Shown one piece after another: positions 42,434 to 46,503 of a stretch of DNA of 64,000 nt. The position numbers and the translations under genes were made by a program. Positions within the stretch are counted from its first letter, which is position 1. Every line of letters starts with the position of its first letter. This stretch comes from Halosolutus halophilus (lineage in GTDB: Archaea > Halobacteriota > Halobacteria > Halobacteriales > Natrialbaceae), in contig NZ_CP094974.1 in NCBI RefSeq assembly GCF_022869805.1, positions 4,402,001 to 4,466,000 of the forward strand, given 5' to 3'. A model generated the notes under the pieces. That model was not told where the DNA came from and ran no database searches. It was given only the letters and a program-made list of their open reading frames with translations.

Positions 42434-42673
42434 ATGGGACGGGACTCCTGTGACGGCTGTGGTCGAACGGTCACGGCCGCCGGTAGCACGGCCAACCTCT
42501 GGACGTTCGGCGAGGGGGACGGCAGCGAGGGGACGGCGATGACGCTGGAATTCGAGGACGGAACGGAACACCTGCTCTGTTATCCCTGTATCGAGGTATT
42601 GCCCGACCATCCGACGGCGGCCGACGTCGAGAAGCTAGCGCAAGTCGACGCGGAGACGTCGCGATTGCGGTAA
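42434..42673 (+). CDS. Small zinc-ribbon protein (79 aa)
   Basis: 79-aa protein, MGRDSCDGCGRTVTAAGSTA, with FEDGTEHLLCYPCIEVLPDH in the middle. CDGC and CYPC are the two halves of a zinc ribbon, linked by about 42 residues including the beta segment NLWTFGEGD. The C-terminal helix (DVEKLAQVDAETSRL) is acidic. It is divergent from the YkgJ-type gene with 90 bp between them. A haloarchaeal DUF (possibly DUF7561); function unknown. Confidence 0.78.
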   Translation: MGRDSCDGCGRTVTAAGSTANLWTFGEGDGSEGTAMTLEFEDGTEHLLCYPCIEVLPDHPTAADVEKLAQVDAETSRLR

Positions 42674-42833: not shown

Positions 42834-42925
42834 GCGGAAGGGGTGGGATTCGAACGCCACGAGGCACGATGGCCGCCGCGGGGCCAGAGGCACCGCGGTG
42901 CTCTTCCGCTGAGCGACCCTTCCGC
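42834..42925 (-). tRNA. tRNA-like element with an abnormal anticodon arm
   Basis: On the minus strand the ends pair perfectly over nine bases, GCGGAAGGG with CCCTTCCGC. A canonical D-arm follows (GCTC-AGCGGAA-GAGC, with A14, GG and A21 positions) and a T-loop G-TTCGAAT-C. Three things are wrong for a normal tRNA. The T-stem GTGG/CCAC has an unpaired C before the closing G-C. The anticodon arm is an extended CCGCGG/CCGCGG helix with an 11-nt loop. About 15 nt separate it from the T-arm. The best-fitting anticodon, UCU (Arg), has C instead of U at position 33. It may be a decayed tRNA, a tRNA with a small unusual intron or a long variable arm, or a tRNA-like RNA. Confidence 0.5.
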
Positions 42926-43035
42926 ACGTGGGTTCGATGGCCGAGTTCGTATTCGTAATCCGTCGGCTACCGGCCGGTAACGGCCGCCTACGGACGAACG
43001 TCACCGTCAGGAAGCGCACGCCAACGGAACGTCGA

Positions 43036-43749
43036 TCACGCGGACGAGCCCGGATCGGGCGACTCGACCTGCGTCGCTCGCGCCGCGGTCGCCTTGAACG
43101 AGGCGACGACGTCCCGGCCCGGCTCGAGCGCGAGCCGATCGAGGCTCGCCCGCGTGATGAGCGCCTGCAGTTCGGCGTCGGCGTCCAGAGCGAGGGTCAC
43201 TCTGACGATCGCGTCGCCCTCCTCGATGCCGGCGACGGTGCCCGTGAACCGGTTCCGGAGGCTGGTTCGATCCGAGTCGGGTGCCTCCCCGGGATCGGTC
43301 AGCACGACCGCGTCGGATCGAACGTTGACCTGGACCGCGGTCGCGTCCGGCGGAACGAGTGCCAGAATCGAGCCGATCGGTGTGTCGACGGTCGCCAGTT
43401 CTCCCGTCCGGTCCCGAACGGTTCCCGTAAAGACGGATTCCGTCACCTGTGCGACGCCGCCGAGTTCGGCGTCGTGTCGATCGAATCGCTGCCGGAGCGA
43501 CCGCGCCGTCGGGGTCAGTTCGGTTCCACCGCCGTCGCTCCCGCCCCGGCGACGCTCGGTGATCGGACCGACGGCGTCTTCGATCTCGACGATCCGGTTC
43601 TGCAGTCGTGCGTACGATCGTCCCAGTTCGTCGGCTGCCCGGTGCATCGAGCCGTACTGGTCGATCGCGTCGAGCATCTCCATGTCCCGTCGATCGATCG
43701 TGACGTCGTCGACGGCCAGTTTCGTGGTGTACTCCTTTTCGATCGTCAT
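43036..43749 (-). CDS. HTH-TOBE molybdate/tungstate-responsive regulator (ModE-like)
   Basis: 237-aa regulator. Residues about 10-100 form a LysR/ModE-type winged helix (MEMLDAIDQYGSMHRAADEL, then SYARLQNRIVEIEDAVGP). The region 100-235 has two TOBE-type beta modules (VFTGTVRDRTGELATVDTP and FTGTVAGIEEGDAIVRVTLA), the fold that binds molybdate or tungstate in ModE and Mop proteins. It lies 70 bp downstream of the tup ABC operon on the same strand and probably represses it when oxyanion is plentiful. Which of Mo or W it senses is unknown. Confidence 0.85.
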   Translation of the reverse strand: MTIEKEYTTKLAVDDVTIDRRDMEMLDAIDQYGSMHRAADELGRSYARLQNRIVEIEDAVGPITERRRGGSDGGGTELTPTARSLRQRFDRHDAELGGVAQVTESVFTGTVRDRTGELATVDTPIGSILALVPPDATAVQVNVRSDAVVLTDPGEAPDSDRTSLRNRFTGTVAGIEEGDAIVRVTLALDADAELQALITRASLDRLALEPGRDVVASFKATAARATQVESPDPGSSA

Positions 43750-43819
43750 TGGTCTTTCGTCGGTCTCGTGTCGCGTTCCGTGCGCACCGTCGGGTGGCGA
43801 CGGTCCCCGTCCTCGGTGC

Positions 43820-44587
43820 TCAGTATATCAGTTCTCCCTCGATAAATTTCCGGGTGCGATCGTCGCTCGGGTTCTCGAACACCCGATCGGCGGGGCCGAC
43901 CTCGAGAATCCGGTTCCCGAGGAGGACGGCGACCCGATCCGCGATTCGCTCGGCCTGGTTCATGTCGTGGGTCGCGACGACGACGCCGATCCCGCGGTCG
44001 CGCGCCTTGCGAACGGCGTCCTCGATGACCGACGTGTTTCGCGGATCCAGGTCGGACGTCGGTTCGTCGAGCAGGAGCAGGTCGGGATCGTACGCGAGCG
44101 CACGGGCGAACGCGACCCGCTGGGCCTCGCCGCCGGAGAGCGACGTCGCGTCCTGGTCGGCGTACTCGCGTAACCCGACGACGTCGAGCGCGTCGAGCGC
44201 GTCGCCGGTTCCGTTGGCCCGGCCGACGATACTCGCGAGTTCGTGACGAACCCGATCGGGCCACGACTGGCGAACCCGGATGCCGTACGCGGCGTTCCGG
44301 CGGACGCTCGTGTCGAAGAGGCTCGCGTCCTGGAAGACCATCCCGATCCGCCGCCGGTACTCGAGGCGTCGCTGTTCGGACACCCGCCAGACGTCGACGC
44401 CGTCGAACTCGATCGACCCGCGATCCGGGGGGTCGAAGAGTGCGAGCAATCGGAGCAGGGTGGACTTCCCGACGCCCGAGGGGCCGATGATCGCGACGAC
44501 CTCGCCGGGAGTGACCGACAGGGAAACGCCCTCGAAGACGGGGTCGGTGCCGTAGCCGTGGTGCACGTCCGTCGCGTCGAGCGTCAT
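43820..44587 (-). CDS. tupC: Tungstate-type ABC transporter ATP-binding protein
   Basis: 255-aa ATPase of an oxyanion importer. Walker A is [19 protein letters not shown] at residues about 32-50, the Q-loop [11 protein letters not shown] at about 84-94, the signature [19 protein letters not shown] at about 140-158, and Walker [19 protein letters not shown]. The His switch is in [15 protein letters not shown]. Its ATG overlaps the permease stop by four bases. Assignment to tungstate rather than phosphate rests on the binding protein encoded in the same operon. Confidence 0.9.
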
Positions 44588-45330
44588 CGGTACCCCCCGT
44601 CGTCGCTTCCGAGCCGAATCACGATCGCGTTGACGATCAGGACGAGCACGACGAGGATCCCGCCGAGGAGCAACGCGGTGTCGAACCGGCCCTGGCGGGC
44701 CTCTAGCTGGATCGCGGTCGTGAGCGTCCGCGTCTTCGAGGTGCCATTCGGGCCGGCGATGTTGCCGCCGACGATGAGGACGGACCCGACCTCGCTGATC
44801 GCGCGGCCGAACCCTGCCAGGACCGCCGTCGCGATCCCGTACCGCGCTTCCTTGATCGTTACGAGGGCGACGTCGACCCGCGTCCCGCCGACAGCGTACG
44901 CCGCGTCGCGGACGGTCTCCTCGACGCTGCTCACTGCGGCGACGCTCACCCCGGTGATAACCGGCGTCGCGAGGACGAACTGCGACATGATCATCGCCTC
45001 CGGAGTGAACACGAGGTCGAGCGAGCCGAGCGGTCCCTGGCTGGACACCAGAAACAGGACGAGGAGTCCGACGACGACGCTCGGGAACCCCATGCCGGTG
45101 TTGATGACCGAGGTGACCAGCCCCTTCCCGCGAAACTCCGCGAATCCGACGAGGAGCGCGATCGGGACGCTACAGACGGTGCTCAGCGTGACCGCGAGGA
45201 GACTGACGTACAGCGAGACGCGGACGATGCTTCGCACGTAGTTCCACTCGAAGGGGAACTCCGCGAGCGGCGACGCGATCGCAATGCCCTCGGCGAACGC
45301 CGGCACGGTCGCAATGCTTTCCGCTATCAT
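44584..45330 (-). CDS. tupB: Tungstate-type ABC transporter permease
   Basis: 248-aa permease with five to six helices. The segment [21 protein letters not shown] and the EAA-type loop in [23 protein letters not shown] (residues about 150-172) are the ATPase docking site. [17 protein letters not shown] is typical of TupB. It overlaps the tupA stop by four bases (ATGA) and the tupC start by four bases, so translation is coupled along the operon. Confidence 0.9.
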
Positions 45331-46283
45331 TCCGACTCCGAATCACCGTCCGGGCTACCGCCGTCCTCCCAGTTCCACTCCTCGGGGACGTACTGTCGGA
45401 AGTTCGGGTCCTCCGACAGGGCCTCCGGGAAGAACAACTGTTCGCCCTCGACGGTGTAGTTCTCGATGATCGACTGTCCCTCGGGGCCCGTGATGTAGCC
45501 GATGTACGCCAGCGCGAGGTCGTAGTTCACGTCGTGGACGGCCGGGTTGACGGCGACGATCCCGTACGGGTTCATCAGCAGTTCCGGCCCGCCCTCGACG
45601 GGCCCCTGAACGTGAATCTCGAGGTCGATGTTGCTCTGCATCGACAGGTAGGTTCCGCGATCGGCCAGCGTGTAGGCCCCCTGCTCGTTGGCCTGGACGA
45701 GTACCTCGCCCATGCCCTGTCCGGCCTCCATGTACCACTCGCCGAAGCTCTCACGATCGAGCCCCGATTCCTCCCAGAGCGCGAGTTCCTTCGTGTGCGT
45801 CCCGGAGTTGTCGCCACGGGAGACGAACATCGACTCCGAGTCGGCGATCGCCTGGAACGCGGTCGTCACCTCCTCGCTCCCCGCGATGCCCGCCGGATCG
45901 TCGGTTCCGCCGACGACGACGAAGTCGTTGAACATGAGGTCGCGTCGGTTGACGCCGTAGCCTTCTTCCATGAACTCGTCCTCGAGCGATCGGGCGTGGA
46001 CCATCACGACGTCCGAGTCCCCGTTCCGGGCGGTTTTGAGCGCTGCGCCCGTCCCCTGCGCGACGGTGTCGACGGTGACGCCGTACCGGTCCTCGAAGGG
46101 CGCGTTCAGTTCGTCGAGTAGCCCCGTGTCGTCGGTGCTCGTCGTCGTCGTCAGCGTGAGCGTCTCACCGCTGATACCCGGCCCGTCGTCGGATTCGTCG
46201 CTGGTGAGCGACGTACAGCCGGCGACTCCGATCGCGGCGGCGCTTCCGACCGCGGCCACGAACGTCCGCCGTTGTATCGACAT
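45327..46283 (-). CDS. tupA: Tungstate-type substrate-binding lipoprotein
   Basis: 318-aa secreted oxyanion-binding protein. The ATG at 46283 gives [20 protein letters not shown] with a Tat-type RR, a hydrophobic core and the lipobox VAGC. The mature part starts acidic. The TupA-like binding motif [19 protein letters not shown] is at about residues 42-60, and [20 protein letters not shown] and [19 protein letters not shown] follow; TTTS is the hallmark of tungstate-binding TupA. The preference over molybdate is inferred from this motif. First gene of tupABC; 46284-46491 holds its promoter. Confidence 0.9.
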
Positions 46284-46503
46284 AGATACTACGACTGACC
46301 GGACGAGCAAATAGCTTTGGGTACTCGAGCAATGACATTCGGTTGCAGGGGATCGCGTACCGAAATCGATCGGTTTCAGACACGGCGGTTTCGCACGGCG
46401 GAACGCGACGATAGTAACTGGATACGGTTACGCTCCGGGTGTCGCGATCACTGCCCGAGACGGTCCGTAGCCTTTAGGACGCGGCCCCGCGGTGAATCGA
46501 ACG

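What the first reader, a model, noticed from the sequence alone, without database searches (positions are those of the whole stretch)
42834..42925. tRNA-like element with 9-bp acceptor, normal D-arm and abnormal anticodon arm
The end helix, D-arm and T-loop are those of a tRNA, but the T-stem has a bulge, the anticodon arm is an extended self-complementary helix, and 15 extra bases precede the T-arm. It is either a decayed tRNA, a tRNA with a non-canonical small intron, or a tRNA-like RNA with another job. Nine-plus-four pairing of acceptor and T-stem recalls tRNA-Sec or allo-tRNAs, but there is no UCA anticodon, so I do not claim that.
Basis: partly seen in the sequence, partly recalled or inferred. 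Interest (0 to 1): 0.75.

Follow-up and report, generated by a model that had tools for sequence, protein, structure and literature searches.

The report
Conserved anticodon-less tRNA-like RNA, haloarchaea
The window carries a small RNA gene that folds like a transfer RNA but has a closed hairpin where the anticodon should be, and the same RNA is kept, usually as one copy, across many salt-loving archaea, so it is probably a working tRNA mimic with a job outside reading the genetic code.

Summary
On the minus strand, 42923-42835, lies an 89-nt tRNA-like gene: 7-bp acceptor GGAAGGG/CCCUUCC, normal D-arm, an anticodon arm replaced by a capped hairpin, a type II-like variable arm (the '15 extra bases'), and a T-arm with one bulged base. 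ARAGORN and Rfam do not call it. Homologues, usually single-copy, occur in 139 of 292 Halobacteria genomes (42 of 78 genera), in none of 203 other genomes of the phylum and in no IMG/VR contig. All 156 distinct copies have the bulged T-stem. In a 29-copy alignment the arm covaries, the core is far better conserved than its flanks, and an AT-rich promoter-like box sits about 30-40 nt upstream. It is therefore not a decayed tRNA, and no intron model fits. It most likely works as a stable, non-decoding tRNA mimic recognised through its invariant acceptor/D/T elbow. Its partner, and whether it is aminoacylated, are unknown. I found no description of it in the open literature searched; one relevant paper (Holzle 2012, tRNA-like elements in H. 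volcanii) could not be read.

The parts
42835..42923 (-). anticodon-less tRNA-like RNA gene, positions 1-73 equivalent (89 nt)
   Evidence: homologues
42917..42923 (-). acceptor stem 5' strand GGAAGGG
   Evidence: invariant in 29/29 aligned sequences
42900..42914 (-). D-arm GCUC-AGCGGAA-GAGC
42876..42898 (-). capped hairpin in place of the anticodon arm: CCGCGG-U-GCC-UCU-GGC-C-CCGCGG
   Evidence: covariation in 5 of 6 pairs of the basal helix; no 7-nt loop
42861..42875 (-). type II-like variable arm C-GGC-CAUCGU-GCC-UC (the '15 extra bases')
   Evidence: same geometry as the variable arm of haloarchaeal tRNA-Ser
42843..42860 (-). T-arm GUGG[C]G-UUCGAAU-CCCAC with bulged C at 42856
   Evidence: 6/5-nt bulged T-stem in 156 of 156 distinct copies
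42835..42842 (-). acceptor stem 3' strand CCCUUCC and discriminator G73; CCA not encoded
42944..42961 (-). TATA-like promoter box (GGATTACGAATACGAACT), about 21-38 nt upstream of the first base
   Evidence: conserved in Natrialbaceae; AT-rich box at a similar distance in all subtypes

Best explanation
It is a free-standing non-coding RNA gene whose product is a stable tRNA mimic that cannot decode. Shown by sequence comparison: a tRNA elbow (acceptor, D-arm, T-arm, with U8, A14, G18G19 and a UUCRANU T-loop) under strong constraint; an anticodon arm turned into a capped helix that varies in sequence and length but keeps its pairing; a conserved bulge in the T-stem; and an AT-rich promoter-like box of its own. 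Inferred: RNase P and tRNase Z trim the ends, the CCA enzyme completes the 3' end, and a protein that binds tRNA (an aminoacyl-tRNA synthetase or another elbow/acceptor binder) recognises the nearly invariant GGAAGGG/CCCUUCC acceptor and T-arm. Missing anticodon and bulged T-stem would keep it out of elongation factor 1A and the ribosomal A site, so it acts off the decoding cycle, either as an amino-acid carrier for a non-ribosomal reaction or, slightly more likely, as a regulatory ligand or competitor for its partner. The claim 'conserved, functional, non-decoding tRNA-like RNA' stands at about 0.9; the ligand/carrier mechanism at about 0.3.
For: Natrialbaceae: 30 orthologous loci, most sharing neighbouring genes; core identity 0.86, promoter 0.70, flanks 0.50. 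Class-wide: 139/292 genomes, zero in the reversed-pattern control; 0 of 203 phylum genomes outside the class. Structure: 98.1% of cells paired, 7 pairs with changes on both sides against 2.1 in shuffles, covariation score reached by 0/500 shuffles and by no slid version. The constrained cloverleaf equals or nearly equals the free minimum in the representatives folded; basal helix of the modified arm averages 6.8 bp against 4.4 in shuffles. T-stem bulge in 156/156 distinct copies although the search patterns did not ask for it. Promoter box at a similar distance in three subtypes lying at unrelated loci. No parent: best own tRNA 75% alike, none of 45 has a GGAAGGG acceptor.
Against: No expression data could be examined for any copy. 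It is absent, by the strict pattern, from about half of the genera, so it is dispensable. The discriminator is G in 121, A in 34 and C in 1 distinct copies, which speaks against one strict synthetase identity. No co-occurring tRNA-dependent enzyme was found: no second full SerRS, no LPG-synthase domain; the CDPS search is uninformative because nothing rang in the controls either. The constancy of the acceptor is partly imposed by the patterns used, though the pattern-free search also shows it.
Confidence: 0.6

Rival explanations
1. Decayed tRNA (pseudogene) or remnant of an integration event.
For: ARAGORN and Rfam reject it; one relative (L030) really looks degenerate; partial 3'-half copies follow the gene in L031-L033.
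Against: Kept across families with compensatory changes and a conserved bulge, promoter and loop nucleotides; no close parent tRNA.
Confidence: 0.02
2. A real decoding tRNA whose anticodon arm is interrupted by a non-canonical intron.
For: Archaea have small non-canonical tRNA introns; extra bases lie in the anticodon and variable region.
Against: I saw no bulge-helix-bulge splice site in the folded copies; the arm apex is not conserved (3-6-nt caps in most folded copies, longer loops in some Haloarculaceae), so there is no conserved anticodon; the own genome has 45 ordinary tRNA hits.
Confidence: 0.03
3. A processing signal (t-element-like) that makes RNase P/tRNase Z cut a longer transcript, as in the 5S rRNA leader of Haloferax.
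For: t-elements exist in haloarchaea (PMC4326828); the long subtype often lies on the same strand downstream of sdhA.
Against: It has its own promoter-like box and sits at unrelated loci in different subtypes. A pure processing signal needs no invariant acceptor sequence.
Confidence: 0.12
4. A substrate of seryl-tRNA synthetase: an amino-acid donor carrying serine for a non-ribosomal reaction.
For: SerRS does not read the anticodon and uses the long variable arm and G73 (established knowledge). The short subtype has G73 and a variable arm with the geometry of haloarchaeal tRNA-Ser (1 nt, 3-5 bp stem, UC before the T-stem).
Against: The long subtype keeps mainly GGCUUC of that arm and often has A73. 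The D-arm is type I, unlike tRNA-Ser. No extra SerRS.
Confidence: 0.12
5. A base-pairing regulatory sRNA that uses the tRNA fold only for stability.
For: Haloferax has many regulatory sRNAs; the hairpin apex is free to change between clades.
Against: The apex is the least conserved part, whereas the acceptor, D-arm and T-arm are nearly invariant.
Confidence: 0.1

Closest known systems
Canonical haloarchaeal tRNA (type II: tRNA-Ser/Leu)
   Same: acceptor of 7 bp, U8, D-arm with G18G19, UUCRANU T-loop, long variable arm in the short subtype, unencoded CCA
   Different: no anticodon loop, bulged T-stem, D-arm of type I with 4 bp and usually 7 nt, acceptor unlike any tRNA of the genome
Bacillus cereus tRNA-Other (pseudo-tRNA outside translation)
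   Same: tRNA-like RNA not used for decoding, in a lineage-restricted distribution (PMC3399842)
   Different: tRNA-Other has a Trp (CCA) anticodon and is confined to some Bacilli; this one has none and occurs in many genera of one archaeal class
tRNA-like domain of bacterial tmRNA
   Same: acceptor and T-arm kept, anticodon arm replaced by an extended helix
   Different: no mRNA-like part or tag; about 80-120 nt only; archaeal; full D-stem
t-element of Haloferax volcanii (5S rRNA leader)
   Same: tRNA-like fold in haloarchaea, expected substrate of RNase P/tRNase Z (PMC4326828)
   Different: t-element lies in the rRNA transcript and serves processing; this is a separate gene with a promoter-like box
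tRNA-Sec and allo-tRNAs (8/4 or 9/3 acceptor/T arms)
   Same: long variable arm, odd acceptor/T geometry
   Different: conserved acceptor is 7 bp, T-stem is 5 bp plus a bulge, no UCA or any anticodon
rancRNA_s194 of Haloferax volcanii
   Same: 97-nt free-standing ncRNA with a TATA box, in Haloferax (PMC6104027)
   Different: the Haloferax copies have no complement to the published cstA site +61..+68, and s194 is reported as confined to Haloferax

Membership tests
Canonical decoding tRNA | 7-nt anticodon loop with an anticodon | tested here: not met
   capped helix in the window copy; no standard anticodon loop in the folded representatives
Canonical decoding tRNA | cloverleaf with intact D/T tertiary nucleotides | tested here: met
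   U8, A14, G18G19, UUCRANU T-loop invariant or nearly so
Canonical decoding tRNA | recognised by tRNA models | tested here: not met
   ARAGORN 0 in window, Rfam none for the window copy; the long subtype does hit RF00005 at 39-44 bits
tRNA-Sec / allo-tRNA | acceptor longer than 7 bp, conserved | tested here: not met
   outer two pairs are not conserved in relatives
tRNA-Sec / allo-tRNA | UCA or other functional anticodon | tested here: not met
   no anticodon loop
tRNA-Ser (SerRS substrate) | G73 and long variable arm | tested here: inconclusive
   met in most of the short subtype; 34 of 156 distinct copies have A73, and the long subtype mostly lacks the stem
tRNA-Ser (SerRS substrate) | serylation | not testable with these tools
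   needs in vitro charging
t-element (processing signal) | located inside a longer functional transcript | tested here: inconclusive
   own promoter-like box and changing neighbours, but many long copies follow sdhA; no transcript data
rancRNA_s194 | 8-nt complement to cstA mRNA +61..+68 | tested here: not met
   on Haloferax relatives (H. volcanii itself was not identified among the genomes)
tmRNA | tag-encoding mRNA-like region | tested here: not met
   whole RNA is 89 nt, no insert; ARAGORN no tmRNA
tRNA-Other type pseudo-tRNA | expressed tRNA-like RNA absent from polysomes | not testable with these tools
   no expression or polysome data available

The most novel reading that the evidence does not exclude
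A family of free-standing tRNA mimics without anticodon, spread through the Halobacteria, that is charged with an amino acid (or held uncharged) and works outside translation, for example as the amino-acid donor of an unknown tRNA-dependent pathway or as the sensor/competitor of a synthetase; to my knowledge it would be the first such RNA conserved so widely in an archaeal class.
Probability: 0.3. Interest if true: 0.9.

Novelty: new variant of a known kind. Interest (0 to 1): 0.76.

Why it matters
Structured non-coding RNAs conserved widely across an archaeal class are few, and tRNAs stripped of decoding are little known outside tmRNA, plant-virus tails and a Bacillus pseudo-tRNA. Here the acceptor and elbow are held nearly invariant while the decoding end is abolished, a natural separation of 'what binds proteins' from 'what reads codons'. 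Homologues occur in genetically tractable genera (Haloferax, Haloarcula), so aminoacylation, binding partner and phenotype can be tested directly. It also shows that window-type copies are missed by ARAGORN and Rfam.

Tried and rejected
Pseudogene: rejected by covariation and conservation. Intron: no splice motif seen and no conserved anticodon. Nine-pair acceptor: outer pairs not conserved. s194 identity: tempting because the Haloferax copies are 98 nt and s194 is 97 nt, but the published cstA pairing site has no complement. tRNA-dependent partners: an extra SerRS and lipid aminoacyl transferase not found; CDPS uninformative. Viral origin: no match in IMG/VR contigs. Known RNA family: none for the window copy. 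Literature: searches for tRNA-like RNAs in haloarchaea gave only t-elements and unrelated sRNAs; Holzle et al. 2012 is not held, so I cannot exclude that they list the Haloferax copy. The conserved Haloferax sRNAs H225.2R, hts10 and htsf_359, whose sequences I could not see (PMC3956466), could be this RNA; not testable here.

Full report
What is there. The window is from a haloarchaeon of the same family as genomes whose named relatives are Natrialbaceae. Between a small zinc-protein-like ORF ending at 42673 (+) and a ModE-like regulator at 43036-43749 (-) lies, on the minus strand at 42923-42835, GGAAGGG-TC-GCTC-AGCGGAA-GAGC-A-CCGCGG-T-GCC-TCT-GGC-C-CCGCGG-C-GGC-CATCGT-GCC-TC-GTGG[C]G-TTCGAAT-CCCAC-CCCTTCC-G. 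This is a cloverleaf with an ordinary acceptor of 7 bp, an ordinary D-arm and T-loop, a capped helix instead of the anticodon arm, a variable arm of the type II kind, and a T-stem with one bulged base. ARAGORN calls no tRNA in the window, and Rfam gives neither a gathering-level hit nor a tRNA hit at E up to 10.

More than chance. The single-sequence fold is weak evidence (z -1.5). Comparison is strong. A 161-base BLAST query finds single-copy matches in most family genomes, giving 30 loci. In 29 intact Natrialbaceae copies the core is 86% identical pairwise and the promoter stretch 70%, while 90 bases on either side are 50%. On an alignment that includes copies from outside the family, 98.1% of cells are paired; seven pairs show changes on both sides against 2.1 in shuffles; the covariation score (0.110) is not reached by any of 500 shuffles and falls to 0.017-0.048 when partners are slid. 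Five of the six pairs in the basal helix of the modified anticodon arm have double changes. MAFFT, not a structure-fitted aligner, made that alignment.

How far it extends. A covariance model (it also picks up ordinary tRNAs at lower scores) and patterns show the same RNA across the Halobacteria: 139 of 292 genomes and 42 of 78 genera by a strict pattern, with none in the reversed-pattern control. None of 203 phylum genomes outside the class and no IMG/VR contig matches. Three subtypes can be told apart. A: Natrialbaceae, the window's own type, bulge GUGG[C]G. B: a short type in Halorussus, Haladaptatus and others, bulge GCG[U]GG. C: a long type of roughly 93-105 nt (one copy longer) in Haloferax, Haloarcula, Halorientalis and Halobellus, same bulge as B, with a longer arm. 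Several genomes hold a short and a long copy.

What is kept and what is free. In 156 distinct copies the T-stem has 6 nt against 5 with a bulge every time, although the search patterns fixed only the 3' side; the T-loop is UUCRANU; the D-loop is nearly always AGYGGNA; the discriminator is G in 121, A in 34 and C in 1. The acceptor is invariant, partly by the patterns, but also in the pattern-free family search. The region between D-arm and T-arm runs from 29 to 73 nt. The modified arm mostly ends in 3-6-nt caps that differ between clades; in some Haloarculaceae the folded loop is longer and holds a clade-specific GCCAGA motif. Its basal helix is longer than in shuffles (6.8 against 4.4 bp). 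The cloverleaf is the free minimum or close to it in the copies folded.

Own gene. In all three subtypes an AT-rich box lies about 40 to 28 nt upstream of the first base, although the surrounding loci are unrelated: neighbours kept among Natrialbaceae, sdhA upstream for the long type with homologues in about 29 loci, a response-regulator-like gene and glmS for Halorussus. This is where an archaeal TATA box would sit for a transcript starting a few bases before G1. No expression data were available.

Origin. The genome's ordinary tRNAs are all clearly different: the best aligns at 75%, where tRNAs among themselves average 65%, and no tRNA has the GGAAGGG acceptor. So it is not a recent decayed copy.

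How it probably works. Constraint lies on the face that proteins read (acceptor, D/T elbow), and the decoding end is closed. Missing anticodon and T-stem bulge should exclude it from EF-1A and the A site (inference from known EF-Tu contacts with the T-stem). The simplest mechanism is a tRNA mimic bound by a tRNA-binding protein, as ligand, competitor or amino-acid carrier. The short type has G73 and a variable arm laid out as in haloarchaeal tRNA-Ser (GGC...GCC-UC), so SerRS is the first candidate; the A73 copies and the reduced arm of the long type weaken this. No extra SerRS or lipid aminoacyl transferase was found in 44 genomes; the CDPS search had no positive control.

Known RNAs. t-elements of Haloferax are rRNA-leader processing signals (PMC4326828). 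The H. volcanii tRNA inventory of 52 genes does not mention such an RNA in the text read (PMC2584109). rancRNA_s194 is 97 nt and 50S-bound, but its published 8-nt cstA site (+61..+68, GGUUACUC in Haloferax relatives) has no complement in the Haloferax copies. The B. cereus pseudo-tRNA tRNA-Other is the nearest functional parallel. I could not read Holzle et al. 2012, nor identify the conserved Haloferax sRNAs H225.2R, hts10 and htsf_359, so priority is not settled.

Limits. Absence in half of the genera rests on a strict pattern and may hide divergent copies. The long subtype scores as a tRNA in Rfam (39-44 bits), so databases may list some copies as tRNA of undetermined type.

Noticed in passing
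L153 99-186; L149; L150; L172; L196; L199; L214; L218; L316: A second, rarer tRNA-like type with acceptor GAAAGGG/CCCUUUC (or GAACGGG), normal unbulged T-stem, type II variable arm and a 6-bp anticodon arm with a small loop; three copies in Halogranum amylolyticum, 3 of 194 genomes by pattern. Weak tRNA-Sec similarity for two copies in Rfam.
   Followed up: partly
L031 2325-2560; L032 about 2680-2730; L033 minus strand; also L075 (own genome, after a tRNA-Lys): Partial tRNA 3'-half repeats ending ..GTTCGAATCCCACCCCGTCCGC follow the element (and a similar one follows an ordinary tRNA-Lys) at roughly 100-nt spacing; they may be integration scars or a repeat family.
   Followed up: no
L030 1507-1586 (minus): One Natrialbaceae genome (G006) has a degenerate copy with a broken D-arm and altered acceptor, possibly a true pseudogene of this RNA.
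   Followed up: no
L112, L113, L114: One genus (g6) carries a second short copy at another locus, with similar upstream and downstream sequence among the three genomes seen.
   Followed up: no
L161, L173, L204, L212 and other Haloarculaceae copies: The arm apex holds a clade-specific motif (U)GCCAGA, absent from other clades; it may mark a clade-specific contact.
   Followed up: no
window 43036-46310 (-): ModE/TOBE-type regulator followed by ABC transporter genes and a substrate-binding protein, looking like a tungstate/molybdate uptake cluster (from the ORF translations only).
   Followed up: no
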